Source: Promicromonospora iranensis
GTDB taxonomy: Bacteria > Actinomycetota > Actinomycetes > Actinomycetales > Cellulomonadaceae
Assembly: GCF_028994805.1 (NCBI RefSeq)
Contig: NZ_JAJQQP010000011.1
Coordinates: forward strand, 186,001-250,000
Direction of reading: 5' to 3'
DNA length: 64,000 nucleotides
Part shown: in pieces, positions 38,045 through 62,706 of the stretch
Layout of the letters: each line of letters starts with the position of its first letter
Position numbering within the stretch: position 1 is the first letter of the stretch
Notes under the pieces: generated by a model
Databases searched by the model: none
What the model was told of the DNA's origin: nothing
Seen by the model: the letters and a program-made list of their open reading frames with translations, nothing else
Translations under genes and position numbers: made by a program

Positions 38045-38229
38045 GGCGTGTCGCACTCTTCGTCTCGGGGGTAAGAACGCCCTACTGTCCCATGGGGACG
38101 AGAGGGTAAAAAATTCGGATGTCGCGGTCTTCTCTTCTGTGCAGATGTGATGGCAATCTCCGTCAGGACGCGTAGGTTGCCCTACGGGCCCCGCACGGGG
38201 GCTCATCTTCACGCACAGGAGAGTGAACC
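38045..38229. promoter_or_regulatory. Divergent promoter region, acyltransferase and subtilase
   Basis: These 185 bases separate two outward-facing genes. A run GGTAAAAAATTCGG near 38105-38118 is the most AT-rich spot of this neighbourhood and probably marks promoter DNA. No exact -35/-10 pair is assigned. The subtilase ribosome binding site AGGAGAG lies at the right end. Confidence 0.4.
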
Positions 38230-47890: not shown

Positions 47891-48874
47891 CTAGACGTCG
47901 GCCTTCGCGCGCTCCGCCGCCTCGGCCTTCTTCTTCGCCGCCTCTTCCGCGGCACGCTTGCGCTGCAGCGCCCGGCGGCGGGCCGGACCCATGCCGGGAC
48001 GCTGCGCGCGCACGAACTTCTTGTACGCGTCGGCGACCTCGTGGACGGGGCCGTCCATCACCAGCTGGCCCTGGTGCATCCACAGCACGCGCGTGCACAT
48101 CGCCTCGATCGTCGAGATCGAGTGGCTCACGAGGAACACCGTGCCCGCGTTCTCGCGGACCTGCTCGATGCGCGCCTTGCTGCGCTCCTTGAAGGCGGCG
48201 TCGCCGGTGGCGAGAGCCTCGTCGATCATCAGGATGTCCGGCGAGGCGGACGACGAGATCGCGAACCGCAGGCGCGCGCCCATACCGGACGAGTAGGTCT
48301 TCATCGGCATGTAGACGAAGTCGCCGATCCCGGCGAACTCCACCACCTCGTCGAACCGCTCCTCGACCTGCTTGGGCGTGAGCCCGAGCGCGAGCCCGCC
48401 GATCATGATGTTGCGCTCGCCCGTCAGCATCGGCATGAGCGCCGCGTTGACACCGAGCAGCGAGGGCTCGCCCGACACGTGCACACTGCCGGACTTCGGG
48501 GGCATGAGGCCCGCGATCGCCCGGAGCATGGTGCTCTTGCCGGAACCGTTGACGCCGACGATGCCGACGGACTCACCGTGCCGCACGGTGAACGAGACAC
48601 CGCGCACCGCGTGGACCTCGCTCACGGCGCCGACGTGCTGACGTCCGGCGCGGAGCAGCCTCTTGTGGAACGGCACCTTGACCTCGACCTCGCGGATCTC
48701 GGCGCCCTTCCTCTCGGCCTCCTTCTTGGCCCGGCCGCCGATGACGCGGTAGACGACGTGCAGGTCGTCCACCACGAGGCAGGGGTCGCCCAGCTCTGTC
48801 TCGAGCGCCTCCTCCCCCTCGTCCTCCGGCTCGACCTCGAGGTCGAAGTCCATGTGCTCGTCGGCCTCAGTCAC
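47891..48874 (-). CDS. Polysaccharide/teichoic-acid-type ABC exporter ATPase (TagH/Wzt-like)
   Basis: A 327-residue ATPase of the TagH/Wzt group that powers export of lipid-linked wall glycopolymers. Walker A GVNGSGKST, signature YSSGMGARLRFAI and Walker B DILMIDEALATGD are typical of this group. An acidic N-terminal tail (about residues 1-30) and a Lys/Ala/Arg-rich C-terminal tail are unusual additions; there is no Wzt-type carbohydrate-binding domain. The GTG start overlaps the permease stop by eight bases. It forms the exporter of the adjacent glycopolymer locus. Confidence 0.9.
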   Translation of the reverse strand: MTEADEHMDFDLEVEPEDEGEEALETELGDPCLVVDDLHVVYRVIGGRAKKEAERKGAEIREVEVKVPFHKRLLRAGRQHVGAVSEVHAVRGVSFTVRHGESVGIVGVNGSGKSTMLRAIAGLMPPKSGSVHVSGEPSLLGVNAALMPMLTGERNIMIGGLALGLTPKQVEERFDEVVEFAGIGDFVYMPMKTYSSGMGARLRFAISSSASPDILMIDEALATGDAAFKERSKARIEQVRENAGTVFLVSHSISTIEAMCTRVLWMHQGQLVMDGPVHEVADAYKKFVRAQRPGMGPARRRALQRKRAAEEAAKKKAEAAERAKADV

Positions 48875-49865
48875 GTCCGTACCTCTCTTCGCCGCGCCAG
48901 AAGACGATGAACCCGATCACGAAGAACAGCACTGCCCAAGCCCCGCCGAGCGCCCACATCAGGCCGCTGTGCGGGAACATGTCCTCCTCCTGCATCAGCA
49001 CCGAGCGCACCAGGTAGAGATACACGGCGACAGGCTGGTACTCGAGGATGCCGCCCACGATCGCCTTCCCCGTCTCGGAGATCTGCAGCCGGTCGACAAA
49101 GGTGAGCACCGGGAAGATCACGCCCGACGCGTACATCACCACCCGCATGACGAAGGGCACCACGTTCTCGATGTCCGGTGTGCTGGCCACGAACCGCGCC
49201 ATGAAGAACGCCAGGCCCATGTTGAAGATCCACATCAGTGCGACCGCGGCGGGCAGCAGCAGCCACCACCACGAGACACGGATCATCTCGTAGCCGGGCA
49301 GGTACCCGCTCAGCAGCGTGATCGCGCACATGACCACGATCGCGGGGATGAGCGTGGTGAGCAGCGACAGCACCGTCGACATCGGTAGCACCGCGCGGGG
49401 GAAGTGGAGCGAGCGCAGGAGCTGGGTCTTGCCGCTGATCGACTTGGCGCCGCCGGTCACGGAGGCCTCGACGAACCGGTACATGAAGACGCCGATCACG
49501 ATGAACGCGATCGAGTTGTCCACACCCCGGTTGAGGCCGAGCAGGACGCCGAAGATCAGCACGTAGACGGCCGCGTTGAGGATCGGGTTGAGCACCGCCC
49601 AGAGCTGACCCAGGTAGTTGTTCTGGTTCTTGGCGTACGCGGTCGACGTGGCGAGGACCCGGATGAACGCCCAGCGGCGCGTGAGGTCACGGATGTACTC
49701 ACCCAGCGGCGGACGAACGTTCAGCGGTCGCAGCCCGTACTTCTTGGCGAGCGCCAGCCGCTCGGCGGATGTCGTGCCAGGGACGAGCGGTGGCGGCGGC
49801 TTCTTGGCATCGCCGCTGGCCGGGGCCTTGGCCGGCGCGGCCGCGTCGGTAGTAGGTGTGCTCAC
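48867..49865 (-). CDS. Polysaccharide/teichoic-acid-type ABC exporter permease (TagG/Wzm-like)
   Basis: A 332-residue ABC-2 family permease with six membrane segments after a cytoplasmic Pro/Ala-rich N-terminus. Typical features: YAKNQNNYLGQLWAVLNPILNAAVYVLIFG and LLRSLHFPRAVLP. I chose the GTG at 49865; an in-frame ATG at 50000 would add 45 low-complexity residues. The ribosome binding site is weak. With the overlapping ATPase gene it makes the export pump for a lipid-linked polymer. It is divergent from the glycosyltransferase genes starting at 50032. Confidence 0.89.
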   Translation of the reverse strand: MSTPTTDAAAPAKAPASGDAKKPPPPLVPGTTSAERLALAKKYGLRPLNVRPPLGEYIRDLTRRWAFIRVLATSTAYAKNQNNYLGQLWAVLNPILNAAVYVLIFGVLLGLNRGVDNSIAFIVIGVFMYRFVEASVTGGAKSISGKTQLLRSLHFPRAVLPMSTVLSLLTTLIPAIVVMCAITLLSGYLPGYEMIRVSWWWLLLPAAVALMWIFNMGLAFFMARFVASTPDIENVVPFVMRVVMYASGVIFPVLTFVDRLQISETGKAIVGGILEYQPVAVYLYLVRSVLMQEEDMFPHSGLMWALGGAWAVLFFVIGFIVFWRGEERYGRD

Positions 49866-50031
49866 GGTGCGTGAAATACCTGTCTGGTCGGGGGCACTGC
49901 CGGGGACGATCCGGCCATTCGATCCTAGCGGGTCACGAACCCTAGCAGTGTGGTCGGGAATGGCTGACAGGCTGACGACCTCGGACGACGTGTGGGACAC
50001 GTGAGGATCCTTACGTGAGAGACTGCACCGC

Positions 50032-51105
50032 GTGCATCACCCCCGTCCCGCCTCTCGGGCCACGGACCCGCGCGCCACGTCCCCCCGTGCCGCCGGCGCC
50101 CTGGTCGAGTCGCCGCTGCAGCTGCTCTGCACCGTGGAAGCGCACGCCGCCGGATACGGCGGCACAGATACCCATGTGCACGTACGCGACGACGTCCCCG
50201 CACTGGGTGACGCGCTGGCTGCCGTCCGCGAGCTCCGCCTGCCCGAGGGACTGACGTTCGACCTCGCGGGCCGGCGCAGTGCGCTGACGGCCCGCGAGCC
50301 CGTCTGGCTCGTCGGCGATGCCTTCTCGGGCCTCTTCCAGGCCACCGCTCCCCTGCGCCGCACCGAGCGCATCGTGCTGGTCGACGACGGCCTGGCGACC
50401 CTCGAGCTGTGCCGCCTGTTGGTGCGGCGCGCCCCGCTGGTCCGGATCGGCAGCCGGGCGCCCGCGCCCCGGCGTCGGCTCGGTGCCGTGGCCGCCGGAC
50501 GCCTGCGGTCCCTGGCCGCCGACGGCCGCGTCACGATCTTCACCGCGCTCCCGCTGGCCCCCGACCTGGCCGCCGGACTGCGGGCCCAGGGGTTCGAGGT
50601 GCGGCCCAACCGCTTCGGCTGGCTCACGGCACAGCCCGCGGACGCCGCGATGACCGAACCCACCATCGTCGTCGGCTCCGCCATGGCCGCAGACGGGCTG
50701 ATCGACCAGGACCGCTACGTCGACTGGATCCGGTCGCTGGCGAAGGAGGGGGAGCTGCGCTACCTCCCGCACCGCCGTCAGACGCCGGAGCTGCTCGCCA
50801 CGCTGGCGTCGATCGACGGCGTCGTCGTCGACGCGCCGGGCGCACCCGTGGAGATCCGGCTGCGCGGCCTGCGGGCCGGCCAGCGCGTGCTGAGCCTGCC
50901 GTCGACGTCGACCATCCTGCTGACCACTATCATTTCACCGCTCGGTGTCCCCGTCACCGCGCTCGACGTGCCCGCCGACTGGTGGACCCCGCGCGCCTCG
51001 GCCGACCACCGAGCACACTTGACCAGCGTCGTCGACCTCGCCCGGCAAGCCCGGGCCGCTGTCGAGGACGCTTCGGAAAATGACTCCCCGGAGGCGAACG
51101 AATGA
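50032..51105 (+). CDS. Polysialyltransferase-like (GT52-type) glycosyltransferase
   Basis: A 357-residue protein that looks like members of the alpha-2,8-polysialyltransferase / GT52-like group of GT-B enzymes. The N-terminal ALVESPLQLLCTVEA and the acidic VDDGLATLEL segment are the two features that support this; overall similarity is not strong by eye. The GTG start lacks a Shine-Dalgarno, but GAGACT lies seven bases upstream. It overlaps the next gene by ATGA. In a locus with CMP-nonulosonate synthesis genes, a nonulosonate-transferring role is reasonable but unproven. Confidence 0.6.
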   Translation: MHHPRPASRATDPRATSPRAAGALVESPLQLLCTVEAHAAGYGGTDTHVHVRDDVPALGDALAAVRELRLPEGLTFDLAGRRSALTAREPVWLVGDAFSGLFQATAPLRRTERIVLVDDGLATLELCRLLVRRAPLVRIGSRAPAPRRRLGAVAAGRLRSLAADGRVTIFTALPLAPDLAAGLRAQGFEVRPNRFGWLTAQPADAAMTEPTIVVGSAMAADGLIDQDRYVDWIRSLAKEGELRYLPHRRQTPELLATLASIDGVVVDAPGAPVEIRLRGLRAGQRVLSLPSTSTILLTTIISPLGVPVTALDVPADWWTPRASADHRAHLTSVVDLARQARAAVEDASENDSPEANE

Positions 51106-52325
51106 CCATCCGCGTGCTCGCGGTCGCGGACAGCGACTCGTACCTGAAGTGGGCATGCGCGACGCTGGACAGGCTCGGCCCGGCCGACGAGTCCGGCCTG
51201 GACCGCTCGGCGGTGATAGTCAAGACGCCGATCGCGCCGACCACCAGTCAGATCGCCGCCGCCGTCGCCGGATCATCCGTGGTCCGTCCCGCCGTCCTGC
51301 CCGTCCGGGAGCTCGCCGCGCAGATCCGGGAGAACACCCCCGACGTGGTGCTCATCGCCGCCACCGGCCCGGTCGCCGAGGTCGTCGCGCGTGCCATCGT
51401 CGGCGCAACCGGCAAGCGCCGTCCCGCACTCATCACCGGCCTACCCGGCATGGCGCTGCCCGCGACGCCGGAGGGCACGGGCTGGCGCCGCTGGTGCGAC
51501 GCCTTCGTCGTGCACAGCCGCCTCGAGATCGATGCCTACCGGGAGGCGTTCGCCGCACACGGCGTCGCGCCCGAGGTTCCTCTGGCGCACCTGCCCTTCC
51601 TCGAGCACATGTCGGCGAGCCTCGGCACCCAGCCCGTCAAGCGCGTCGTCTTCGCCGCCCAGGCCAAGGTCCCGGACAACCGGCCCGACCGCGTCGCCCT
51701 CCTGGACCGTCTCGCGCACCTCGCCGAGGACGAGCTCGAGGTCATCGTCAAGCTCCGCGCCCGCAAGGGCGAGCGGCAGACCCACAACGAGGCGTTCCCG
51801 TACGACGAGCTGTGGGATACCGAGCACGCGCGCCTGGGGCACCGCAGCGACGCCCTGCGGTTCGTCGACGGACCCATGGCCGAGTGGCTCCAGCCCGGCT
51901 CCGCGCTCATGACGGTCAGCTCGACCGCCGCCATGGAGTCGCTGGCTCTCGGCCTGTCCACCGTCATCATCGACGACTTCGGCGTCAGCCCGGAGCTGCT
52001 CAACGCGCCGTTCGCCGGCAGCGGCTGCGTGATGCACGTCGCCGACGCCGCGGAGGCGCTCCGCGCCGGTGGCCCGGAGCCTGACCCGGCCTGGCTCGAG
52101 GACAACTACCTCCACGCGACCGAGTCGGAGCTGCCGGCGACCGTCCAGACCCTCGCGGCGCGCCGCGAGTCGGGCACGCTGACCGCGTTGTCCGAGGTCA
52201 AGCCGTGGCTCAAGGCGCGTTACCTGCGGATGGCGCTGCAGATGTACCTGCCGAGGTTCGTCTACGACACGATCCGGGTCTCGACGCGGCCGGTTCGCCT
52301 GCTCTTCCTGGACAAGAAGGCCTGA
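51102..52325 (+). CDS. DUF6716 putative glycosyltransferase
   Basis: A 407-residue protein matching the actinobacterial DUF6716 putative glycosyltransferase family by its N-terminus VLAVADSDSYLKWACATLDRL and by VSSTAAMESLALGLSTVIIDDFG, a segment like the donor-binding region of GT-B enzymes. There is no signal peptide or membrane span, so it acts in the cytoplasm. It is translationally coupled to the polysialyltransferase-like gene, and such pairing suggests that both work on the same polymer. Donor and acceptor are unknown. Confidence 0.72.
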   Translation: MTIRVLAVADSDSYLKWACATLDRLGPADESGLDRSAVIVKTPIAPTTSQIAAAVAGSSVVRPAVLPVRELAAQIRENTPDVVLIAATGPVAEVVARAIVGATGKRRPALITGLPGMALPATPEGTGWRRWCDAFVVHSRLEIDAYREAFAAHGVAPEVPLAHLPFLEHMSASLGTQPVKRVVFAAQAKVPDNRPDRVALLDRLAHLAEDELEVIVKLRARKGERQTHNEAFPYDELWDTEHARLGHRSDALRFVDGPMAEWLQPGSALMTVSSTAAMESLALGLSTVIIDDFGVSPELLNAPFAGSGCVMHVADAAEALRAGGPEPDPAWLEDNYLHATESELPATVQTLAARRESGTLTALSEVKPWLKARYLRMALQMYLPRFVYDTIRVSTRPVRLLFLDKKA

Positions 52326-52340
52326 CCCCACCGAAGGAGA

Positions 52341-52391
52341 ACCCTGGCGAGGTAGAACCGCAGCGCACCTGCGGTTCTACCTCGCCAGGGT
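52341..52391. repeat. Intergenic hairpin D between DUF6716 and GT2 genes
   Basis: Perfect 23-base arms (52341-52363 and 52369-52391) with a 5-base loop, at a convergent junction. The arm CTGGCGAGGTAGAACCGC is nearly the same as that of hairpin A and similar to B. The downstream flank contains CTGTCTCGGCGG, resembling the flank of hairpin E. It is the clearest member of the repeat family. Confidence 0.8.
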
Positions 52392-52428
52392 GCTGTCTCG
52401 GCAGGGTTCTGTCTCGGCGGCGCAGGGG

Positions 52429-53472
52429 TCAGACGCCGTCGTCGACCCGGACGCGCTCCGTCAGGCCCCGGAGGAATCCCGCGCCCCAGGCCATGTGCAT
52501 CGTCACGAGCGTCGCGGGCAGGGCGAGCGCTGCGCGCAGGTCGAGCCGAGGACGCCGCGACGCCGCGTGCGCCGACGCGGCGAGCACGCCCAGCAGATAG
52601 GTGGCGGGGGGGATCATCCCGATCAGCGTCACCGGCAGCGATCCCAGGACGCCACCCACGACGGCGACCAGCACCGACACGGCGAGCACGAGAACAGCTG
52701 TGGGCGGGGCGAGGTAGCGCAGGCTCGCGGTACCCGGGTTTCGGCGCACCACCTCACGGCGCCACATACCGGTCCGCCAGAACTGGGTCGCCACAGCACG
52801 CAGCGTGCGGCGCGGCTTGTACTCGACCACGAGCGACGGGTCGAACCACAGGAGGCTGCCACTGTTCCGCAGCCGGAGGCAGAGCTCCCAGTCCTGCGCC
52901 CGGACGTACACGGGCGAGTAGCCGCCCACCCGCTCCAGCGCCTCACGGCGGAACGTGCCCAGGTAGACCGTCTCGGCGGGGCCGGCGCTGCCACCCGTGT
53001 GGAACGAGGCGGCGCCGAGGCCTGCCGGGTGGCTCATGGCTCGGGCCACGGCCTTCTGCACGGGGGTGTCACCGACGGGCATCATGCGCCCGCCCACGCC
53101 GTCGGCCCCGGCGGCCTGCAGGGCCTCCACCGCACGGCGCACGTAGGTGGGCTCCGCGACGGTGTGGCCGTCCACGCGGACGAAGATCGAGTGGCCCTCC
53201 GGCATCCGCGCCAGCCCTGCGTTGAGTCCGAGCGGCTTGGAGCCCGTCGGGTTGTCCACGACGGTGACCCGGCCCGTCTCGGCCGCGAGCTTCTCGGCGA
53301 TCTCGTGCGTGCGGTCCTGCGAGGGTCCCACCGCGAGCACCATGTGCAGCGGGTGCGGGTAGTCCTGCTCCATGATCGAGCGCACCATCGCCTCGAGGTA
53401 CGGCTCCTCATCACGTATGACGGCGACCACCGTCACCAACGGCATGCTCGCCGCCTCAACCCGCTCGGGCAC
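52429..53472 (-). CDS. GT2 family glycosyltransferase
   Basis: A 347-residue GT-A glycosyltransferase. Family features: VTVVAVIRDEEPYLEAMVRSI, an acidic donor/metal segment FVRVDGHT, and QDWELCLRLRNSG in the acceptor half. Two or three C-terminal membrane segments (about residues 255-330) anchor it. The layout resembles the polymer-chain or succinoglycan-type transferases (ExoA-like). The GTG start is preceded by GAGAGG. It is separated from neuB by a 214-base gap with a hairpin. Probably builds the polymer backbone or linker. Confidence 0.87.
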   Translation of the reverse strand: MPERVEAASMPLVTVVAVIRDEEPYLEAMVRSIMEQDYPHPLHMVLAVGPSQDRTHEIAEKLAAETGRVTVVDNPTGSKPLGLNAGLARMPEGHSIFVRVDGHTVAEPTYVRRAVEALQAAGADGVGGRMMPVGDTPVQKAVARAMSHPAGLGAASFHTGGSAGPAETVYLGTFRREALERVGGYSPVYVRAQDWELCLRLRNSGSLLWFDPSLVVEYKPRRTLRAVATQFWRTGMWRREVVRRNPGTASLRYLAPPTAVLVLAVSVLVAVVGGVLGSLPVTLIGMIPPATYLLGVLAASAHAASRRPRLDLRAALALPATLVTMHMAWGAGFLRGLTERVRVDDGV

Positions 53473-53539
53473 GTGGCCCCCTCTCGCGATCGCCGGGCCG
53501 GTGCGGCCCGGTCCCGGCTCCGTCCGGACTCCGGGAACA

Positions 53540-53577
53540 TCGGAGGCGGGCGCCGCGCGTGCGGCGCCCGCCTCCGA
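53540..53577. terminator. Hairpin terminator between neuB-like and GT2 genes
   Basis: Perfect 17-base arms (53540-53556 and 53561-53577) around GCGT. Both flanking genes are on the minus strand, so it ends the neuB-like transcript and shows that the GT2 gene has a separate promoter. Confidence 0.7.
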
Positions 53578-53686
53578 CCATCAACGTTCAGCGGGCCCGG
53601 TCGTCGCTCGAGGCGACGGAGCCCACGTCGTGCATACGGCCCGGGCAGTGTACGCGCCCGGACCTGTGTGGTTCCGCGGTGTCAGC

Positions 53687-54580
<894 letters not shown>

Positions 54581-54637
54581 AAGAAGGTCCTTCCGAAAGG
54601 GTCGAGCACAGGGTAGTGCTGTTACGTGTCGTCGGGA

Positions 54638-55882
54638 CTAACCGGTGACGACGGGGGTCTGGACGGCTGCCGTACTGGGGGCAGCTTCACCCTGACGCGC
54701 AGCGAGTATACGGTCACAGATCTCACGAACCGCACCGTTCCCGCCCTCGCGGGACAGGACGAGCCGGGCCTGTGCCCGCACTTCCGGGCGCGCGTCGGCC
54801 ACCGCGACCGGCCAGCCGACCACGGCCATGGCGGCCAGGTCGTTGACGTCGTTGCCGACGTACGCGACCCGGGCCGGGTCCAGGTCCTGCTCCGCGATCC
54901 ACGCACGCAGGGCAGCCGCCTTGTTCTCGACACCGTGCATGACCTGCACCTTCAGCTTGTCGGCACGAGAGGCGACCACCTTGTTGGTCTCTGTCGACAG
55001 GATGAGGATCGGCAGGCCGGTGCGGCGCAGGAGCGAGACGCCCATGCCGTCCCCGCGGCTGACGCGCACCTGCTCGGTACCGTGCTGGTCCACGGAGGCG
55101 TGGTCGTCGGTGTGCACGCCGTCGAAGTCGGTGACGAGCGCGTCGACGTCCAGCGGTCCGGGCGTGGCGTCGACGTCCTGGTCCACGAGCTGACGGGCGA
55201 GCCAGAGGTCACGCGGCTCGTCGATCTCGATGGCCCACTCCGGGGCGACCGGCTGGATACCGACGTCGCCGAAGAACCGCGTGCTGCCTGCACGAAACCC
55301 TTGCGTGCGCATCACATAGAAGGCACCGGTCTCGCGGAAGTGCGGCGCCCGCTCCTGGCGGCGCGGCCGGTACTCGGTGGTGTGCCCCACAGGGCTCGCG
55401 ACGCCGTCGTCGATGCGCCACTGGAAGTCGTGCGTCTCGGAGACCGCCACCACCACGTCCTTCTCGCCCGTGGCGACCCGGCGGATGGCCGTGTCGAGGT
55501 CCTCGGGGTCGATGAACGGCGAGGTGCACTGCACCAGCACGGTCACGGGCGGGATCTCCTGGGGCGGCAGACCGCCGTCGCCGGCCTCGACCCGGTCCAG
55601 TACGTGCTGCAGGGCCGACTCGGAGGACGCCGTGCTGCCCGCGATCTCCGCCGGGCGCGCCACCACGCGCGCTCCGTGCAGCCGGGCCTCGGCGGCGATC
55701 TCGTCGTGATCGGTCGAGACGATGACCTCGGCCACCGACGACGCGGCGAGCGATGCCTGGACCGCGCGCCCGACCAGGGTGATCCCGTCCACCCGAGCGA
55801 GATTCTTCAGGGGCACGCCCTGTGAACCTCCCCGAGCCGGGATGATGACGACGGCGGACGGGGTTTCACCGGGTACAGACAT
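54638..55882 (-). CDS. CMP-nonulosonate synthetase fused to KdsC-type phosphatase
   Basis: A 414-residue two-domain protein. Residues 1 to about 225 are a NeuA-type cytidylyltransferase (IIPARGGSQGVPLKNL, QCTSPFIDPEDLD, RETGAFYVM), which activates nonulosonic acids with CTP. The conserved KG of the ARSGSKG-type loop reads QG here. Residues about 245-395 are a HAD phosphatase of the KdsC kind: DFDGVHTDD with both acidic residues, and GNDVNDLAAM. The same fusion occurs in animal CMP-sialate synthetases. The combination suggests that a 9-phosphate intermediate is dephosphorylated and activated by one protein. ATG at 55882 chosen; GAGAG upstream. Confidence 0.88.
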   Translation of the reverse strand: MSVPGETPSAVVIIPARGGSQGVPLKNLARVDGITLVGRAVQASLAASSVAEVIVSTDHDEIAAEARLHGARVVARPAEIAGSTASSESALQHVLDRVEAGDGGLPPQEIPPVTVLVQCTSPFIDPEDLDTAIRRVATGEKDVVVAVSETHDFQWRIDDGVASPVGHTTEYRPRRQERAPHFRETGAFYVMRTQGFRAGSTRFFGDVGIQPVAPEWAIEIDEPRDLWLARQLVDQDVDATPGPLDVDALVTDFDGVHTDDHASVDQHGTEQVRVSRGDGMGVSLLRRTGLPILILSTETNKVVASRADKLKVQVMHGVENKAAALRAWIAEQDLDPARVAYVGNDVNDLAAMAVVGWPVAVADARPEVRAQARLVLSREGGNGAVREICDRILAARQGEAAPSTAAVQTPVVTG

Positions 55883-56111
55883 ACGTGGCACTCTCGAGTC
55901 GGTCGGCAGGGATATGCCGACCACAGTAGCGCTTCCGCACCGAGCGGCGTGCCTCACGAGGTGCCGTCGACGCAACCGGAGCGGGCCCAGATGTGGGATC
56001 CTGCCGTAGCACGCGGCGGTCGAGCGCCGCGCCCCCCAGAACCGATCCCCACGAAACGGCATGCGGCACCTGAGTGCCGGGGTTGCCGTGCCGAGAACGG
56101 AGACAGCTCGA
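55883..56111. promoter_or_regulatory. Divergent promoter region of the nonulosonate and pyruvyltransferase genes
   Basis: These 229 bases separate the CMP-synthetase start (-) from the first pyruvyltransferase start (+). No real reading frame is apparent. It should contain the promoters of both arms; I cannot assign hexamers with confidence. Confidence 0.35.
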
Positions 56112-58244
56112 GTGCCCGGAACCGAAGGTCGCAAGGCGGACTCCCCGAACCCCGACGGTGGCGTGCCCGGTGCAGTCTCTCGGTCCAAGCGCCGAACGAA
56201 CGCGCGCCGCACCTCCGAGGTCATGCACGCGCTGCGGAGAGTCACGGGCGCCCGCCCCCAGCTCGACCCGATCACCACGCGCAGGCTCGCGAAGGGGCAG
56301 GTGGCCTGGACCGAGGTCCCGGCCGTGCGCACGGCGGCGCTCGACGGCGCCCGGGCGGCGATCGACCGGCAGGACCTGGCCGGGGCCGCCACGCTGACGA
56401 AGCTGCTGCGCACCGGTGCACCCGACGCCGAGACCGGGCGGCTCGCCGGCATCGTCGCCCTGCTCACCGGTGACCCGGAGGCCGCGGAGGAGCACTTCTA
56501 CCAGGCGTCCAAGGGCACGGGCTCGGTGGCGCGGCGGCACACCAACGCGCGTCGGGCGGTCGAGGAGCTGCAGCAGCTGCTCGACCTGCGGGCCCGGGTG
56601 CTCGAGGTGGAGGGCCCAGAGGATCTGACCGACCTGCGGGACATCGCGGCATCGGCGTCCATCACGCATCGCAAGGCGGCCGACGCCGCGCTGGGCCGGT
56701 ACCTCGTGGCATGCCTCACCCGGGGCATCGACGGGCCGTTGGGCCAGCTCCTGGACGAGTTCGCCGACGCCGGGCGGCTGACGGCGCTGAAGGCCCGGCC
56801 GAACCTGCTCGACGTCGCCGTCGAGAACGCCGAGTACCTCGCGACCGACGCCGACCACGCCGGCGCCCTCCACCTGCTGCAGACCACCTTCGAGCACTAC
56901 GGCGTCGTCACCGAGCGCTACCTCCTGGCCCTCGGCACCTCGCTGTCGGCGCTCAGCCGCTACGGCGCCGCTCGCCGTGCCTTCCGCATCGCCAGCGCGG
57001 GCGTGGGCTCCGCACGCGCCGCACAGGTCGCCTGGATCATCCACGACGACGAGTCCGCGCACGCCCTGGCCCGCCGGGCGATCCGCCACGACATGCCGCG
57101 CTCCTCGGTCCGGACCGTGCTCGCCCGTACCGAGAACCCCATCACGCCGCCGGAGGCCGAGGCGACCCAAGGCGGTATGGGCCACGTCGCGTTCTACGTG
57201 GACCGCGGGGAGAACTTCGGCGACATCGTGCTGCCCGACGCCGTCCGGGACGCGATCAGCGAGCCCGCCGGCCGCTCCGAGTGGGTCCCCTTCCACGCGC
57301 ACCAGGTGTTCGACGACGAGTTCGTCCGGATCGCGAACGCCCAGCGCGCGCTCGTCGTCGGTGGCGGCGGCCTGTTCCTCCCGGACACGTCGCCCAACGG
57401 GAACAGCGGCTGGCAGTGGAACGTGCCGCCGGCCTCGCTCGATGCGGTGCGTGTTCCCCTCTTCGCCTTCGCCGTGGGCTTCAACCTCTTCCTGGGGCAG
57501 CAGTTCAAGGGCGACCTCTTCCGCCGCAGCCTGATCGCCTTCACCAGCAAGGCCGAGTTCCTGGGGCTGCGCAACACCGGCTCGATGGAGCGCGTGCGCG
57601 CCATGCTGCCGGACGAGCTGCACGACAAGGTGCGCTTCGTGCCGTGCCCGACCACCGTGCTCGAGCACATCCGACCGGATCTCCCGGCAGCACGCACCGG
57701 CTCCGGCACGGTGCTGCTCAACGCCGCCTTCGACCGCAGCGAGCGGCGCTTCGGCGGCGGCTACGCGCAGTTCCTGGAGCACATCGTGGAGCTCGTGGAG
57801 AAGGCGAGCAGGGGTGGGGCCGAGGTCCGGATCGCCGCGCACACGCGCGGCGACCTGCGGCTCGCGAAGGACCTCGAGGCGGCGCACGACCTGTCGCTGC
57901 CCGTGGACGAGCTGCACAACATGGACCAGCCGGACGCCCTCGCCGTCTACCGGCAGGCCTCGCTCGTGATCGGCATGCGCGGTCACTCGACGATGATCCC
58001 GTTCGGCCTGGGCACCCCGGTGCTGAGCATCGTGTCGCACCCCAAGATGCGGTACTTCCTGGAGGACGTCGACCGCACGGACTGGGGTTTCGACGTGTCC
58101 GACCCCGATCTCGGCGCCCGGCTCGCGGAGCGCACCCTCGACGTGCTCGCCCGCGAGGAGGACTACCGGGCCGACGTCGCCGAACGGCAGCTCATCCTGC
58201 TGCCGCACGTCCGGGCGGCAGCCGAGGACGTCGCCAAGGTCTGA
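56112..58244 (+). CDS. Polysaccharide pyruvyl transferase with helical N-terminal domain
   Basis: A 710-residue protein. The C-terminal half (from about residue 357) is a polysaccharide pyruvyl transferase, which puts a pyruvate ketal on sugars using phosphoenolpyruvate: GENFGDIVLPDAV, VVGGGGLFLPDTSPNGNSGW and GMRGHSTMIPFGLGTPV. The first 350 residues are Ala/Leu/Arg-rich and helical, like TPR repeats, and are not usual for the family. I chose the GTG at 56112, preceded by GGAGA; an ATG at 56061 in frame lacks a ribosome binding site. It is followed by the GT42-GT8 gene after 64 bases. Confidence 0.87.
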   Translation: MPGTEGRKADSPNPDGGVPGAVSRSKRRTNARRTSEVMHALRRVTGARPQLDPITTRRLAKGQVAWTEVPAVRTAALDGARAAIDRQDLAGAATLTKLLRTGAPDAETGRLAGIVALLTGDPEAAEEHFYQASKGTGSVARRHTNARRAVEELQQLLDLRARVLEVEGPEDLTDLRDIAASASITHRKAADAALGRYLVACLTRGIDGPLGQLLDEFADAGRLTALKARPNLLDVAVENAEYLATDADHAGALHLLQTTFEHYGVVTERYLLALGTSLSALSRYGAARRAFRIASAGVGSARAAQVAWIIHDDESAHALARRAIRHDMPRSSVRTVLARTENPITPPEAEATQGGMGHVAFYVDRGENFGDIVLPDAVRDAISEPAGRSEWVPFHAHQVFDDEFVRIANAQRALVVGGGGLFLPDTSPNGNSGWQWNVPPASLDAVRVPLFAFAVGFNLFLGQQFKGDLFRRSLIAFTSKAEFLGLRNTGSMERVRAMLPDELHDKVRFVPCPTTVLEHIRPDLPAARTGSGTVLLNAAFDRSERRFGGGYAQFLEHIVELVEKASRGGAEVRIAAHTRGDLRLAKDLEAAHDLSLPVDELHNMDQPDALAVYRQASLVIGMRGHSTMIPFGLGTPVLSIVSHPKMRYFLEDVDRTDWGFDVSDPDLGARLAERTLDVLAREEDYRADVAERQLILLPHVRAAAEDVAKV

Positions 58245-58308
58245 TCCGCTCTCTCCGTTCCCGGCCGTTAGACTCGACCGGTCTCAGTACACCGAAAGGG
58301 AGTAATCG

Positions 58309-60219
58309 ATGCCCACCATGCGGAGCGTGCCGCTCGGCCGTGAGCCCGGCGACGCGGAGATCGCGTCGTTCGCCGACCTGATCGACCGGCCACTGCTGAT
58401 CGTCGGCAACGGGCCGTCGTCGGCCATGCCTCCCTACCACCGGATCCCGGCGGACGTGGTCGTCTTCCGCATGAACTGGTTCTTCCTGGAGAGCAACTAC
58501 CACTTCGGGGACCGGGTGGACGCGTACTTCAGCGCCATCCCGAACGAGAAGCTGGAAAAGCTGCTGCAGGAGGAGATGCGGTCCAACCGGTATGACGTGC
58601 GCCGGATCCTCAGTCCGATGCGTCACGCCGCGAACCGCGACGGTGACAGGTACGGACTGGAGCCGATGCCCGGTGTCGAGGAGCTCGACTCGTGGTCCGT
58701 GCCGGCTCGGTTCCCCCGTCTCGCACGCGCCTTCATGAGCCGGCCCGGCCTGCCCACCACGGGGATGCAGGCGCTGGCGTTCGGCCTGGGCGTCGGTTTC
58801 CGCGAGATCTACCTCGCCGGCGTGGACATGTACGAGTCCAAGGACAGCCGATACGGCTACACGGTCACGCAGGCCGCGGAGTCCGCGCTCAAGGACAAGG
58901 ACCTCACGCCGGGCTACGAGTCGGCGCACGGGCTCGACTCGGACCTCTCCTTCCTGCGCTCGTGCCTCACCGAGTTCCCGGACGCGACGATCCGCTCCGT
59001 GAGCCAGTCGGACACGCTGCACCTGTTCGTGCCGCAGGCCGACGAGCTCGCCGACCGCCCGCACCTCACCCCGGAGGCGGTACCGACCCTCGCCGCGTCC
59101 AAGGACACGGTGGACCTCACATTCGCCGAGGTGGGCGAGGACACGTCGGTCGTCATCCCCGAGGTCGGCGGTCCGCTGTGGAAGGAGATCGACGGTCGCA
59201 AGTGCGCGTACGTCACTGTCGTCTCCGGCGCGTACCACCATGGCGCACGCGCCCTGGCGAACTCGCTGCGCAAGCACTCGGACGTCCCGCTGATCGCGCT
59301 GGTCACACCGGACGCCGACCGCGCGGCGCTGGCCGCCAGCGGCATCCGGACCATCCAGGTGCCCGGCATCCGCAACCCGATGAACTCGGGCGGCAGGAAG
59401 ATCCAGGCCCGCTTCGCGATGACCTACACGAAGCTGCACGTGTTCCGGCTCGACTTCTTCGACCGGCTCGTCTACCTGGACAGTGACACGGTCGTCAAGG
59501 GCAACCTGGACGATCTGTTCGACGGCGACGGCTTCGCCGCCGTGCCCGACGCGGGTCTGGACCTGCCCGACGGCACCGTGTTCAACTCCGGCGTCTTCGC
59601 CGTGAACCCGTCGCACGGAATGTTCGAGAAGATGATGTCCGAGCTCAACCACACGACGTCGTACGACGGCGGGGACCAGGGCTTCCTCAACGAGTTCTTC
59701 TCGGACTGGCGCAAGCTCCCCCTGGAGTACAACACCACCAAGCGCATCTACTCCCACCACCCGCAGGTGTTCAACGACGAGGACGTCAAGGTCCTCCACT
59801 ACGTGGGGCGCAAGCCGTGGGAGCCGACGTCGAAGGGTGAGCGGTACGACCAGCTCGACTATGCCTGGCTCGACCACCTTGCCGACTGGGAGAAGAACGA
59901 GCTGGTGCGCGACCTGCGGCACGCCGCGGCCGGCGGGAAGCCCCCGGAGGCGGGGAGCAACAGCCCGTTCCGTCAGGCCCAGCTCGCGAACAAGACGAAC
60001 AAGGCCAGTGAGGCCGTGCGTGTCATCGAGGCCGTCATGACGCAGCGCGAGGCGACGTCGGCGGAGCTGCGCGAGCTCGCCAAGGCATACCGTCGCCTGG
60101 GCCGCCATGACGACTGCGCGCGCGTGCTCAAGCAGGCCTACGCGATCGACCCGCGCCGGAGCGTCATGCGGGACGCGATGCTGGCACAGGCGCGCTCGAT
60201 CAAGAACAGGCTCGCCTGA
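58309..60219 (+). CDS. GT42 sialyltransferase-like domain fused to GT8 glycosyltransferase
   Basis: A 636-residue fusion. Residues about 25-190 resemble the GT42 sialyltransferases CstI/CstII: IVGNGPSSAMPPY with the GNGPS CMP-binding turn (33-37), VVFRMNWFF, and TTGMQALAFGLGVGFREIYLAGVDMY. Residues about 300-530 are a GT8-type GT-A domain: VTVVSGAYHHGARALANSL, LDSDTVV with the DxD metal site D391-D393, FNSGVFAVN, and YDGGDQGFLNEFF. The end (about 560-636) is helical and TPR-like. Fused, the protein could add a nonulosonate and a hexose in turn. The ATG is preceded by AAAGGGAG. No membrane span. Confidence 0.85.
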   Translation: MPTMRSVPLGREPGDAEIASFADLIDRPLLIVGNGPSSAMPPYHRIPADVVVFRMNWFFLESNYHFGDRVDAYFSAIPNEKLEKLLQEEMRSNRYDVRRILSPMRHAANRDGDRYGLEPMPGVEELDSWSVPARFPRLARAFMSRPGLPTTGMQALAFGLGVGFREIYLAGVDMYESKDSRYGYTVTQAAESALKDKDLTPGYESAHGLDSDLSFLRSCLTEFPDATIRSVSQSDTLHLFVPQADELADRPHLTPEAVPTLAASKDTVDLTFAEVGEDTSVVIPEVGGPLWKEIDGRKCAYVTVVSGAYHHGARALANSLRKHSDVPLIALVTPDADRAALAASGIRTIQVPGIRNPMNSGGRKIQARFAMTYTKLHVFRLDFFDRLVYLDSDTVVKGNLDDLFDGDGFAAVPDAGLDLPDGTVFNSGVFAVNPSHGMFEKMMSELNHTTSYDGGDQGFLNEFFSDWRKLPLEYNTTKRIYSHHPQVFNDEDVKVLHYVGRKPWEPTSKGERYDQLDYAWLDHLADWEKNELVRDLRHAAAGGKPPEAGSNSPFRQAQLANKTNKASEAVRVIEAVMTQREATSAELRELAKAYRRLGRHDDCARVLKQAYAIDPRRSVMRDAMLAQARSIKNRLA

Positions 60220-60242
60220 CGCCGCTGCCATAGGACGTGGCA

Positions 60243-60297
60243 GGACAAAGCTGGGGCGGTGCGAACCATGTGGTTCGCACCGCCCCAGCTCTTGTCC
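60243..60297. repeat. Intergenic hairpin E between GT42-GT8 and pyruvyltransferase genes
   Basis: Perfect 20-base arms (60249-60268 and 60271-60290) with a 2-base centre; beyond a one-base bulge six more bases pair (60243-60248 with 60292-60297). At a convergent junction. The arm CTGGGGCGGTGCGAACC is only weakly like hairpins A and D, but the flank TGTCTACCTCGGCGG resembles that of D. Confidence 0.75.
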
Positions 60298-60327
60298 CTA
60301 CCTCGGCTGTCTACCTCGGCGGAGGGC

Positions 60328-61662
60328 TCAGCTGCCCGTGAGCTTCTTGCGCAGCGGCCGCAGCCGGCGACGCAGGCCCGCGGTCATCGACTGGCGGGGA
60401 ACAGCGGCAAGCTCGAGGTCCTTGCGGGCCTTGTTGAGCTCGCGCTTGAGCCGGCCGTTGTCCTGCTCCATCTTGTCGAACCGCATGGACGCGTCGTACG
60501 CCCGGGCCGCGGTACGGCGCTCCGGCGGCGTCAGCGCACGGAAGGACGGCGTGACCGTCTCGCCCGTGAGGCTCTTGTAGATGTCGGCGAGGTTGCCCAT
60601 CGACGTGTCGAAGAAGCGCTGGCGGACGTCGGCAAGCTCCTTGCGCAGCTCCGGCTGACGCTCGTGGACCTCGTTGATCGTCGTGTACAGGGTGTCCTGG
60701 AAGCCGTCCTTGCGCGGGTCGATCGCCCAGTCCGCGTGGCCGATGTCGGTCGCGAAGTAGCGGATCTTGTGGTGCACGTACAGGGACAGCGGGATGGTGC
60801 CCATGCCGAACGGAACCATCTGCGCGTGCCCGCGTGTCCCGAGGATGATCGGCAGATCCGCGAAGTACTCGATGCCCTTGTACAGCACGTCACGAGAGCC
60901 CCACAGGACGTGCTCGCTGCTCACGACCCCACGCTCGGTGAGAAGGTCGTGGAAGCCCATGTCGGCACGCGCGTGCGGAACGCTCTCGATCCGCCAGCCC
61001 TCCCCGGAGAGCTTCTCCAGGACATCGACCTGGTCGGCGTAGATCTTGCCCGCGTCGAACCCGGCGCGCGCCTGGCGCTTGCCCACGATCGACTCGGCCG
61101 CGATACGGCGCTCGTGCGGGATCTCGGCCTGGTACAGGTCGGGGTAGAGATAGGACGACACCGTCGTCGGGCAGGGCTGGTACTTGACCCGGTCCCGGTT
61201 CGGCGCGCTGATGTACTCCTTGATGGTCTCCACGGAGCCGTGGTTGCGCAGACCGAAGAAGACCGACTTCTCGAGGGTCAGGTTCACGTGCTCGCGGAAC
61301 GGGTCCGCGAAGTCCGCCTGGTCGATGAACCGGTTGTTGCCCACGGAGAAGATGATGAGCGGCTTCTCGATGCGACGCAGCAGGTCCAGCGAGATGTTCC
61401 ACTGCCAGCCGGACCGCTGGTTCGGGTTGGTGTCGCTCAGGAAGAGCCCACCACCGCCGATGACGACAGCATCGACGTTCTCGTTGATGAAGTCGACGAG
61501 ACGCGGCGTCACGGGGTCCCGCAACTGTCGGCTCTGGACGACCTCGAAGGCATCCCCGCCCGCGAAACCTTCGAACAGCTCGCGCACTGCTTCGAACAGC
61601 AGCGTGTCGCCGTAGTTGCCGTAGGTCTTGATGTCGAAATGGAACAGTCGAAGTCGCTTCAT
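60328..61662 (-). CDS. Polysaccharide pyruvyl transferase family protein
   Basis: A 444-residue pyruvyl-transferase-fold enzyme. Features: LRLFHFDIKTYGNYGDTLLFEAV, VIGGGGLFLSDTNPNQRSGW, GLRNHGS and GTRGHAQMVPFGMGTIPLSL. The GGGGLFL-SDT and RGH-MxPFGxGT segments match those of the protein at 56112-58244, so the two are paralogues, but this one lacks the N-terminal helical region and instead has about 90 C-terminal residues that are basic and coiled-coil-like. I chose the ATG at 61662 because the family domain begins there; upstream GTG (61710) and TTG (61728) codons are in frame. Confidence 0.86.
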   Translation of the reverse strand: MKRLRLFHFDIKTYGNYGDTLLFEAVRELFEGFAGGDAFEVVQSRQLRDPVTPRLVDFINENVDAVVIGGGGLFLSDTNPNQRSGWQWNISLDLLRRIEKPLIIFSVGNNRFIDQADFADPFREHVNLTLEKSVFFGLRNHGSVETIKEYISAPNRDRVKYQPCPTTVSSYLYPDLYQAEIPHERRIAAESIVGKRQARAGFDAGKIYADQVDVLEKLSGEGWRIESVPHARADMGFHDLLTERGVVSSEHVLWGSRDVLYKGIEYFADLPIILGTRGHAQMVPFGMGTIPLSLYVHHKIRYFATDIGHADWAIDPRKDGFQDTLYTTINEVHERQPELRKELADVRQRFFDTSMGNLADIYKSLTGETVTPSFRALTPPERRTAARAYDASMRFDKMEQDNGRLKRELNKARKDLELAAVPRQSMTAGLRRRLRPLRKKLTGS

Positions 61663-61770
61663 CGTGTCACGCGCCGGTTCTTGTAGTGCACGGGCACCAT
61701 CCTTGATCACTGTGGTCAGATCTGCCAAGCCCGCCGTCGGGGACGGCAGGACGTCGTGGAGCGGGTCGGT

Positions 61771-62706
61771 TCACTTCCCGCCGGGGAGATAGGGCGACTC
61801 GCCCTTGTTCACCTCGAGGTCCACCGCGTCCTTCGAGAGGCCGCCGGTGACCATACCGTGCAGCGCCTTGTTGGACGGCACGAGCGCGGTCAGCATCTCC
61901 TCGCGCTGCTCCGGGGTCAGGAGCAGCGGCGAAGAGTGCGTCACGTTGGAGAAGTTGGCATCGAGGAACAGTCGCAGCTTGCGCCGGTCCTCCGCCTCGA
62001 GCTCGGCGTTGCCGACGAGCGCGAGCTTCAGCGCCGCGTCAGAATACCCCCGGTTGACGGCCTCGGTGTTGAAGGGGAACTTGGGCTGGACGCCCACGCC
62101 GGTCTGCTGGAAGAACTCCCGCACGAACGGCCGCGAGCGCAGCTGCTTGATGCTCTCGAAGTAGTTCACGCGGACCTCGGAGCCTGCGGGGACCGAAGCC
62201 TTGATCTTCTCGACCAGGCTGTCCCAGCGCAGGTTGTCGGTGGTCACCGGTTCCATGAACTCCTCGAAGGACTTCGTCGATCCCACGCGGACGGTCTGGA
62301 GGTAGGAGCTCTCGACGAACCGGTCCTGGCGCCGTACGTAGAGCAGCACGGTGGTGCGCTCCGGCTGCAGCACCTCGTGCGCGATCCGCAGGATGTCGTC
62401 GGCGGGCGCGTACAGCGGTCCGCTCCGGAAGGAGTGCACCGAGGCCAGGAGGTCCTCGTGCGAGATGACCAGGCTGTCCTGGGTCGCCGCGTCGCGAACC
62501 ATCTCGAACGCCTTGTTCACGTTGCTCAGGGCACCGTCCTGGCGCCGCCACCGGGAGTGGCGTCCCTCCGTGAGGTTCTCGTACTCGTTGCGGATCAGGA
62601 CGTCGTAGCCGCGACGCGCGAATGCCTCACGATTCGAGCGCAGCGCCTTCTGCACCAGCGTCGTACCGGTCTTGTGGGCGCCGACGTGGAGGACGAGGTG
62701 CTTCAC
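61771..62706 (-). CDS. Sulfotransferase-like protein
   Basis: A 311-residue protein with the sulfotransferase 5'-phosphosulfate-binding loop HVGAHKTGTT (residues 7-16) and a 3'-phosphate-binding-like segment with Arg/Ser in YVRRQDRFVESSYLQ. This places it among PAPS-dependent sulfotransferase-fold proteins common in polysaccharide loci; actual sulfation activity cannot be read from sequence. The GTG at 62706 is chosen because the motif begins six residues in and GAAAGG lies upstream. No signal peptide, so it would act in the cytoplasm on a nucleotide- or lipid-linked precursor. Confidence 0.8.
   Translation of the reverse strand: MKHLVLHVGAHKTGTTLVQKALRSNREAFARRGYDVLIRNEYENLTEGRHSRWRRQDGALSNVNKAFEMVRDAATQDSLVISHEDLLASVHSFRSGPLYAPADDILRIAHEVLQPERTTVLLYVRRQDRFVESSYLQTVRVGSTKSFEEFMEPVTTDNLRWDSLVEKIKASVPAGSEVRVNYFESIKQLRSRPFVREFFQQTGVGVQPKFPFNTEAVNRGYSDAALKLALVGNAELEAEDRRKLRLFLDANFSNVTHSSPLLLTPEQREEMLTALVPSNKALHGMVTGGLSKDAVDLEVNKGESPYLPGGK

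What the first reader, a model, noticed from the sequence alone, without database searches (positions are those of the whole stretch)
47891..62706. Glycopolymer locus with nonulosonate, pyruvyl and sulfotransferase-type genes
One 15-kb block holds a TagGH-like exporter, a NeuB-type synthase, a CMP-nonulosonate synthetase with phosphatase, GT42-, GT8-, GT2- and polysialyltransferase-like domains, a DUF6716 protein, two pyruvyl transferases and a sulfotransferase-like protein. Seen directly: the family motifs and tight gene spacing. Established: actinomycete walls contain Kdn-based teichulosonic acids and pyruvylated teichoic acids, and TagGH-type pumps export wall polymers. Inference: this locus makes such a polymer, for which I know no described gene set.
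Basis: partly seen in the sequence, partly recalled or inferred. Interest (0 to 1): 0.85.

Follow-up and report, generated by a model that had tools for sequence, protein, structure and literature searches.

The report
Sulfated, pyruvylated Kdn wall-polymer genes
This stretch of a Promicromonospora genome most likely holds the genes that build a sialic-acid-like cell-wall polymer decorated with sulfate and pyruvate, a polymer that chemists had already described in a close relative without, as far as I could find, its genes being named.

Summary
In detail: every gene type named is at 47891-62706. The genome is a Promicromonospora, and P. citrea ATCC 15908 carries the same locus. A review reports that the P. 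citrea 665T wall contains ->6)-a-Glc-(1->6)-a-Glc3SO3-(1->4)-a-7,9Pyr-Kdn-(2->. The genes fit it well: nonulosonate synthesis and activation, two sialyltransferase-type enzymes, a glycogenin-like domain, pyruvyltransferases, a sulfotransferase, PAPS supply, a TagGH exporter. NeuB, NeuA-phosphatase, the PST-like protein and DUF6716 form an older core seen in other actinomycetes; a Streptomyces coelicolor teichulosonic gene set is published, so 'no described gene set' is wrong for the class. New is the link of the sulfate, pyruvate and GT42-GT8 genes to this polymer. Among 11 sampled genomes of the genus, sulfotransferase and GT42-GT8 occur in the same 6. Against a tight tie, the PAPS block also adjoins loci without this sulfotransferase. 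Not shown: any enzyme activity, or the source strain's polymer.

The parts
42176..43507 (-). CysN-like, sulfate adenylyltransferase GTPase subunit
   Evidence: GTP_EFTU 1.2e-42 and GTP-eEF1A_C on the frame; ATG at 43507
43507..44409 (-). CysD-like, sulfate adenylyltransferase subunit 2
   Evidence: PAPS_reduct domain 3.8e-41; the only other PF01507 match of the genome is CysH on contig C26
44406..45479 (-). CysQ-like PAP phosphatase
   Evidence: Inositol_P 1.2e-30; CysQ assignment from context
45543..46574 (+). TauE/SafE-type sulfur anion transporter
   Evidence: TauE 2.6e-43; start
46571..47851 (+). CysC, APS kinase with a long N-terminal region; makes PAPS
   Evidence: APS_kinase 1.4e-56 at residues 246-398; only APS kinase match in the genome
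47891..48874 (-). TagH-type ABC ATPase
   Evidence: ABC_tran 7.4e-21
48867..50000 (-). TagG-type ABC permease
   Evidence: ABC2_membrane 1.7e-7
50032..51105 (+). Polysialyltransferase-like protein, likely CMP-Kdn-dependent transferase
   Evidence: no Pfam hit; model pLDDT 87.4; top PDB matches Neisseria NST 3.3e-6 and PolyST 4.1e-6; invariant DDG and PHRR motifs
51102..52325 (+). DUF6716, putative glycosyltransferase
   Evidence: PF20471 2.2e-118
52429..53472 (-). GT2 family glycosyltransferase (C-terminal hydrophobic stretches by eye, not tested)
   Evidence: Glyco_tranf_2_3 1.7e-15
53687..54580 (-). NeuB family synthase without a C-terminal SAF domain match, likely Kdn-9-phosphate synthase
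   Evidence: NeuB 1.8e-84 is the only Pfam match; single match in 12 of 12 genomes
54638..55882 (-). NeuA-type cytidylyltransferase fused to KdsC-type phosphatase
   Evidence: CTP_transf_3 3.6e-19 and Hydrolase_3 1.6e-8; KdsC 8.1e-30 and KDN-9-PPhBT 1.9e-28, both below cut-off; start
56061..58244 (+). Pyruvyltransferase A with a ~380-aa N-terminal region of no Pfam match
   Evidence: PS_pyruv_trans 3.7e-21 at 385-659
58309..60219 (+). Fused GT42 (Cst-II-like) and GT8 (glycogenin-like) transferase with TPR-like tail, possible chain polymerase
   Evidence: CST-I and Glyco_transf_8; phmmer Cst-II family about 1e-10, glycogenin 5.7e-29
60328..61728 (-). Pyruvyltransferase B
   Evidence: PS_pyruv_trans 1.1e-12
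61771..62706 (-). Divergent PAPS-dependent sulfotransferase
   Evidence: 5' and 3' PAPS-binding motifs in 9 of 9 homologues; PF13469 E 0.03; GTG at 62706
62790..64000 (-). Amidase_2 protein, conserved neighbour, runs past the window end (657 aa in L003)
   Evidence: Amidase_2 3e-14; neighbour of the locus in the four named Promicromonospora

Best explanation
The region 42176-62706 encodes synthesis, decoration and export of a Kdn-teichulosonic acid of the Promicromonospora citrea type. Steps: NeuB joins mannose-6-phosphate and PEP to Kdn-9-phosphate; the phosphatase part of the fused protein removes the phosphate and the cytidylyltransferase part makes CMP-Kdn. The PST-like protein and the GT42 domain transfer Kdn; the glycogenin-like GT8 domain adds a-glucose, so the GT42-GT8 fusion could alternate the two sugars as a chain polymerase. 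One pyruvyltransferase puts the 7,9-ketal on Kdn, using PEP. CysDN and CysC make PAPS, the sulfotransferase sulfates a glucose, and CysQ clears the by-product PAP. TagGH exports the finished chain for attachment to peptidoglycan. Shown: families, gene order, motifs and co-occurrence; published: the polymer of P. citrea. Inferred: every enzyme activity, the order of steps, and that the source strain makes this polymer.
For: Published P. citrea 665T structure with Kdn, 7,9-pyruvate and Glc-3-sulfate (PMC6801904 passage). P. citrea ATCC 15908 carries the locus, with CysC beside TagH. GT42 like Cst-II and GT8 like glycogenin, in line with a-Kdn and a-Glc. PST-like fold ranks sialyltransferases first. 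PAPS motifs in the sulfotransferase in 9 of 9. CysH carries the APS-reductase cysteine signature in 12 of 12 genomes, so CysC should not be needed for sulfur assimilation; Cellulosimicrobium arenosum has such a CysH beside CysD and only one weak CysC-type match (E 6.5e-4). No NeuC over cut-off in 12 of 12 genomes. Sulfotransferase and GT42-GT8 in the same 6 of 11 sampled genus genomes. CysC match 6.1-14.9 kb from NeuB (start to start) in 20 of the 24 sampled genomes that hold both. DUF6716, NeuA, NeuB and PST-like lie together in 7 of 7 fetched g52 genomes.
Against: The polymer of the source strain is unknown. The P. citrea locus has two sulfotransferases and three pyruvyltransferases, this one has one and two. 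The PAPS block also adjoins NeuB where no sulfotransferase of this family is found (5 of 11 sampled genus genomes; Isoptericola and Krasilnikoviella); 13 of 37 CysC genomes lack NeuB and 20 of 44 NeuB genomes lack CysC, so the link may be inherited order rather than coupling. The GT2 enzyme would be expected to make a beta bond, yet the published repeat has only alpha bonds; and the GT2 had no match in the 20 class-level stretches, so it is not seen in the old core. NeuB and Kdn-phosphatase NCBIfam matches are below their cut-offs. The sulfotransferase model (pLDDT 74.7) matches P-loop kinases best; sulfotransferase folds come lower, E about 0.01-0.02.
Confidence: 0.8

Rival explanations
1. 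The locus makes another nonulosonic-acid polymer (for example with Neu5Ac, legionaminic or pseudaminic acid), a capsule-like or sialylated glycan rather than Kdn-teichulosonic acid.
For: NeuB matches both NeuB_NnaB and PseI models, each below cut-off, and the cytidylyltransferase matches PseF, below cut-off; the transferases resemble sialyltransferases. PseB/PseC-type genes were not searched genome-wide. 7 of 12 genomes have weak NeuC-type matches.
Against: No NeuC over cut-off in 12 genomes; no amino-sugar pathway gene recognised in the locus; Kdn is the sugar reported from the wall of P. citrea, whose genome has a single NeuB match.
Confidence: 0.1
2. The CysDNCQ-TauE block is ordinary sulfur metabolism that merely lies beside the polymer genes; sulfation, if any, does not depend on this neighbourhood.
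For: It adjoins the locus in genomes without this sulfotransferase (L062, L080, L082, L084, L085) and in five SulfoT-negative Promicromonospora. It holds the only CysD match, so it must also feed assimilation. 13 of 37 CysC genomes have no NeuB.
Against: CysH sits elsewhere and is of APS-reductase type in 12 of 12, so CysC and CysQ point to PAPS use; five g21 genomes carry another sulfotransferase-motif gene about 1.1 kb from NeuA.
Confidence: 0.3
3. The two modification halves serve two polymers: NeuB to GT42-GT8 the Kdn polymer, and PyrT-B plus the sulfotransferase something else, such as the 4,6-pyruvylated galactan also reported from P. citrea.
For: P. citrea 665T has a second, pyruvylated galactan; PyrT-B and the sulfotransferase are co-oriented and present as two pairs in three relatives.
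Against: The reported sulfate is on the Kdn polymer, not on the galactan; the sulfotransferase and GT42-GT8 genes occur in the same 6 of 11 sampled genus genomes.
Confidence: 0.2

Closest known systems
Teichulosonic acid gene set of Streptomyces coelicolor, SCO4873-SCO4882
   Same: Kdn wall polymer; Planobispora counterparts of SCO4878 and SCO4880 are listed as GT2 and sialic acid synthase; in 7 of 7 fetched g52 genomes (13 positive; large, unnamed) NeuB, NeuA-phosphatase, PST-like and DUF6716 sit together
   Different: No match to our GT2, GT42-GT8, pyruvyltransferases, sulfotransferase or Cys genes in the 20 class-level stretches (15-19 kb each, rest of those genomes not searched); the S. 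coelicolor polymer is described as galactose and Kdn with GlcNAc or methyl, no sulfate or pyruvate mentioned in those passages. The SCO genes themselves were not available here.
Wall polymer of Promicromonospora citrea 665T (chemistry only)
   Same: Kdn, a-glucose, 7,9-pyruvate and 3-sulfate match the gene content; the P. citrea ATCC 15908 genome has the locus
   Different: A chemical structure without assigned genes in what I could read; the P. citrea locus has extra sulfotransferase and pyruvyltransferase copies
Bifunctional capsule polymerases joining a hexosyl- and a sialyltransferase (Neisseria meningitidis W-135/Y, recalled)
   Same: One protein with two transferase domains, one for a nonulosonic acid and one for a hexose
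   Different: Different families: here GT42 plus glycogenin-like GT8
Cst-II sialyltransferase and glycogenin
   Same: Sequence matches about 1e-10 and 5.7e-29 to solved structures
   Different: Fused in one protein with a TPR-like tail

Membership tests
Actinomycete Kdn-teichulosonic acid locus | NeuB, CMP-nonulosonate synthetase and dedicated transferases in one locus | tested here: met
Actinomycete Kdn-teichulosonic acid locus | Shared core with other actinomycete loci | tested here: met
   16 of 20 fetched DUF6716 stretches hold NeuB, 15 NeuA, 15 PST-like, 0 GT2; the 20 are from 34 positive of 197 genomes
Actinomycete Kdn-teichulosonic acid locus | Synthase uses mannose-6-phosphate, product is Kdn | tested here: inconclusive
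   NeuC not over cut-off in 12 of 12, KDN phosphatase model below cut-off; PseB-type routes not searched
Actinomycete Kdn-teichulosonic acid locus | Kdn polymer in the wall | not testable with these tools
   reported for P. citrea 665T, unknown for the source strain
PAPS-dependent sulfotransferases | 5' and 3' PAPS-binding motifs | tested here: met
   9 of 9 homologues; motif definitions recalled
PAPS-dependent sulfotransferases | Match to a curated sulfotransferase family | tested here: not met
   PF13469 E 0.03, 15 bits against a cut-off of 27; 2 of 9 members match at all
PAPS-dependent sulfotransferases | Sulfotransferase fold | tested here: inconclusive
   best matches P-loop kinases (4.2e-4), sulfotransferase folds at E about 0.01-0.02
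GT42 | CST-I/II family match and conserved NGPS and His regions | tested here: met
   Pfam 1.7e-9, invariant G33-S37 and H207 in 10 of 10; their catalytic role recalled
GT8 | Family match, DxD and LHxxGxxKPW motifs | tested here: met
   Pfam 2.1e-17, glycogenin 5.7e-29, invariant D391, D393, H497, G500, K502-W504 in 10 of 10; motif role recalled
GT52/GT38-type sialyltransferases | Fold and D/E-D/E-G plus HP motifs (recalled) | tested here: inconclusive
   sialyltransferases rank 1-4 and 6, a plant glucosyltransferase 5, TM to query 0.37-0.51; DDG invariant, but PHRR in place of a plain HP; no Pfam match
Polysaccharide pyruvyltransferases | PF04230 over cut-off | tested here: met
   two proteins
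TagGH exporters | ABC ATPase and ABC-2 permease pair | tested here: met
   substrate not testable

The most novel reading that the evidence does not exclude
This is the first gene set for a sulfated and pyruvylated Kdn wall polymer of a Gram-positive bacterium. It would contain a new sulfotransferase family, a Kdn 7,9-pyruvyltransferase, a GT42-GT8 polymerase, and a lineage-wide habit of keeping PAPS supply next to the wall-polymer genes, with swappable decoration cassettes that change the cell surface between species of one genus.
Probability: 0.55. Interest if true: 0.75.

Novelty: new variant of a known kind. Interest (0 to 1): 0.64.

Why it matters
Actinomycete wall polymers have largely been described by chemists without their genes (my knowledge; the review says pyruvylation there serves mainly as a chemotaxonomic marker). 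Here a precise structure and a precise gene set meet in one species with a public genome, so each step (Kdn synthesis, 7,9-pyruvylation, sulfation, alternating polymerisation) becomes directly testable. The sulfotransferase falls below the cut-off of curated Pfam families.

Tried and rejected
A single-operon reading was rejected: strands alternate. Neu5Ac by a NeuC route was judged unlikely: 7 of 12 genomes have NeuC-type matches, none over cut-off, so they are more likely other UDP-sugar 2-epimerases. A strict tie of the PAPS block to this sulfotransferase was rejected: five sampled Promicromonospora genomes and several Isoptericola-type genomes have the block without it. NeuB's missing C-terminal domain was considered as a sign of Kdn specificity and dropped: the best solved match, named as a sialic acid synthetase, is also short (6ncs, 290 residues). 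PHO boxes: 8 matches with 3 mismatches in the window, 5.4 expected, none convincing. Sequence search of PDB with the sulfotransferase gave nothing at E 1.

Rows dropped before counts: 19 of 121 genomes match the sulfotransferase profile at E 1e-3; I count only the 7 at E below 1e-150 as this family; of the 12 weak ones, 5 have a match about 3 kb from NeuB and 7 do not. In one search, 11 of 11 genomes have an APS-kinase match at E 1e-3; I count 10, leaving out C. arenosum's (E 6.5e-4, at the cut-off). Searches used E limits of 1e-20 and 1e-80 and scored at most 28 and 10 candidates per genome. The 121 genomes were drawn from a larger family. Fisher tests (p 2.8e-5 for NeuB with CysC over 121; p 0.002 for sulfotransferase with GT42-GT8 over 11) ignore kinship.
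Full report
What is there. The window is G000:C3:186001-250000 of a 5.84-Mb genome. A GC3-based gene choice and Pfam scans give, from left to right: CysN, CysD, CysQ (minus strand), TauE and CysC (plus), TagH and TagG (minus), a PST-like protein and DUF6716 (plus), GT2, NeuB and NeuA-phosphatase (minus), a pyruvyltransferase and a GT42-GT8 fusion (plus), a second pyruvyltransferase and a sulfotransferase (minus), then an amidase (starts). The finding's coordinates run from the end of TagH to the start of the sulfotransferase, so the sulfate genes lie just outside it.

Which organism. The GT42-GT8 protein is 90-94% identical to four named Promicromonospora genomes, 80% to Myceligenerans indicum, 68-69% to Isoptericola and Krasilnikoviella, and 57% to Cellulosimicrobium arenosum. 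The P. citrea ATCC 15908 contig holds every gene from TagH to the amidase in the same order, with one extra sulfotransferase and one extra pyruvyltransferase, and CysC lies beside TagH at the contig end; its CysD is on another contig, so adjacency of the rest of the PAPS block cannot be seen there.

The chemistry. A review (PMC6801904; passages seen, not the whole text) reports for P. citrea 665T two wall polymers: a Kdn-teichulosonic acid with repeat ->6)-a-Glc-(1->6)-a-Glc3SO3-(1->4)-a-7,9Pyr-Kdn-(2->, and a 4,6-pyruvylated, 2-O-acetylated galactan. For Promicromonospora sp. VKM Ac-1028 it reports a pyruvylated glucuronic acid polymer and names no Kdn. The original paper (Dmitrenok 2017) was seen only as a reference. 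That ATCC 15908 is the same type strain as VKM Ac-665 is recalled; PMC13274763 (passages) names DSM 43110T as the P. citrea type strain.

How genes and structure meet. Kdn: NeuB (single match in 12 of 12 genomes), a fused CMP-nonulosonate synthetase and KdsC-type phosphatase (NCBIfam matches below cut-off), and no NeuC over cut-off in 12 of 12. Backbone: a GT42 domain like Cst-II and a GT8 domain like glycogenin, by established knowledge an a-glucosyltransferase, with invariant GT8 motifs in 10 of 10; and a PST-like protein whose predicted structure (pLDDT 87.4) ranks Neisseria sialyltransferase and bacterial polysialyltransferase first among PDB chains, though TM-scores are moderate and other GT-B enzymes follow closely. 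Pyruvate: two PF04230 proteins. Sulfate: a protein with both PAPS-binding motifs in 9 of 9 homologues, but under the Pfam cut-off and with a model of middling confidence whose best structural matches are P-loop kinases.

Why the sulfate block matters. CysC is the only APS kinase match of the genome. CysH lies on another contig, and the paired-cysteine APS-reductase signature is present in 12 of 12 genomes. By established knowledge such an enzyme reduces APS, so PAPS should not be needed for assimilation and CysC points to sulfation. C. arenosum, which has NeuB but only one weak APS-kinase match, keeps CysD beside CysH. In 121 genomes sampled from the GTDB family, NeuB is in 44, CysC (E 1e-20) in 37, both in 24; in 20 of those 24 they lie 6.1-14.9 kb apart on one contig. 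Against a tight tie: 13 CysC genomes lack NeuB, 20 NeuB genomes lack CysC, and the block adjoins the locus in genomes without this sulfotransferase.

The variable cassette. Of the 11 sampled genomes of the genus, the sulfotransferase and the GT42-GT8 protein occur in the same 6 and are both unmatched in the other 5, although all 11 have NeuB and CysC. In the wider sample GT42-GT8 is in 10 genomes and the sulfotransferase in 7, all 7 among the 10. Of the five negative Promicromonospora, three carry a more distant pyruvyltransferase (42-50%) and an AT3-type acyltransferase beside NeuA; one has an AT3-type acyltransferase beside NeuA and a distant pyruvyltransferase farther off; in one nothing of this set was recognised there. 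In five genomes of group g21 a different sulfotransferase-motif gene (VLHLGSQKTGTT, with a similar 3' motif) lies about 1.1 kb from NeuA; the one scanned has no Pfam match. Nine g21 genomes have NeuB, so four show none near NeuB by this profile. Krasilnikoviella has yet another such gene, beside the amidase near its GT42-GT8 gene. By motif pattern I saw none in the fetched stretches of Isoptericola halalbus, luteus, cucumis and sp. 4D.3.

The older core. DUF6716 is in 34 of 197 class-level genomes, and the control search finds it in Escherichia coli too. Of the 20 stretches that I fetched around it (20 of those 34 genomes), 16 hold NeuB, 15 NeuA and 15 the PST-like protein at E 1e-4; none holds a match to our GT2, GT42-GT8, pyruvyltransferases, sulfotransferase or Cys genes. 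In all 7 fetched genomes of group g52 (of 13 positive; about 6-10 Mb, unnamed, by size possibly Streptomyces) DUF6716, NeuA, NeuB and PST-like lie together. Papers cite SCO4873-SCO4882 of S. coelicolor as the teichulosonic acid genes, after Ostash 2014, seen only as a reference (PMC13011467, passages); PMC8003754 names the S. lividans counterpart (passages); PMC8269224 lists Planobispora counterparts of SCO4878 and SCO4880 as GT2 and sialic acid synthase (passage). My searches for the sulfated and pyruvylated kind found only the chemistry (open-access papers only).

Open points. The GT2 and DUF6716 roles are not assigned; a GT2 enzyme normally makes beta bonds and the published repeat has none, so it may act on the linkage unit. 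Which pyruvyltransferase acts on Kdn is unknown. The source strain's polymer has not been seen.

Noticed in passing
window 31357-33606, 35942-38371, 39792-41981: Three AT3-SGNH acyltransferases close to the locus; related ones sit in or beside the locus in several relatives. They could O-acetylate a wall polymer such as the 2-O-acetylated galactan of P. citrea.
   Followed up: partly
L080 8073-17032, L085 6671-15572, L082 6863-15456: In Krasilnikoviella and two Isoptericola genomes 8-9 kb of other DNA lies between TagG and the PST-like gene, possibly another decoration cassette.
   Followed up: no
L006 11999-16964, L005 12109-16976, L007 12071-17153: Pyruvyltransferase and sulfotransferase genes occur as two pairs in three Promicromonospora genomes; L008 has the extra pyruvyltransferase alone.
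   Followed up: partly
window 53687-54580: NeuB lacks a C-terminal SAF match; the homologues in L005-L009 are also 297 aa, that in L013 311 aa by my start choice. The closest solved structure is also short (6ncs, 290 residues).
   Followed up: partly
G048:C101:100390-101286: The profile match to the Myceligenerans sulfotransferase reads over one TGA; the open frame read in L013 is 297 aa.
   Followed up: no
L003 4844-6202 and 9752-13232: Right of the locus lie a SpoIID-domain protein, an LPG_synthase_TM protein, and group 1 and group 2 glycosyltransferases, perhaps another envelope glycan locus.
   Followed up: no
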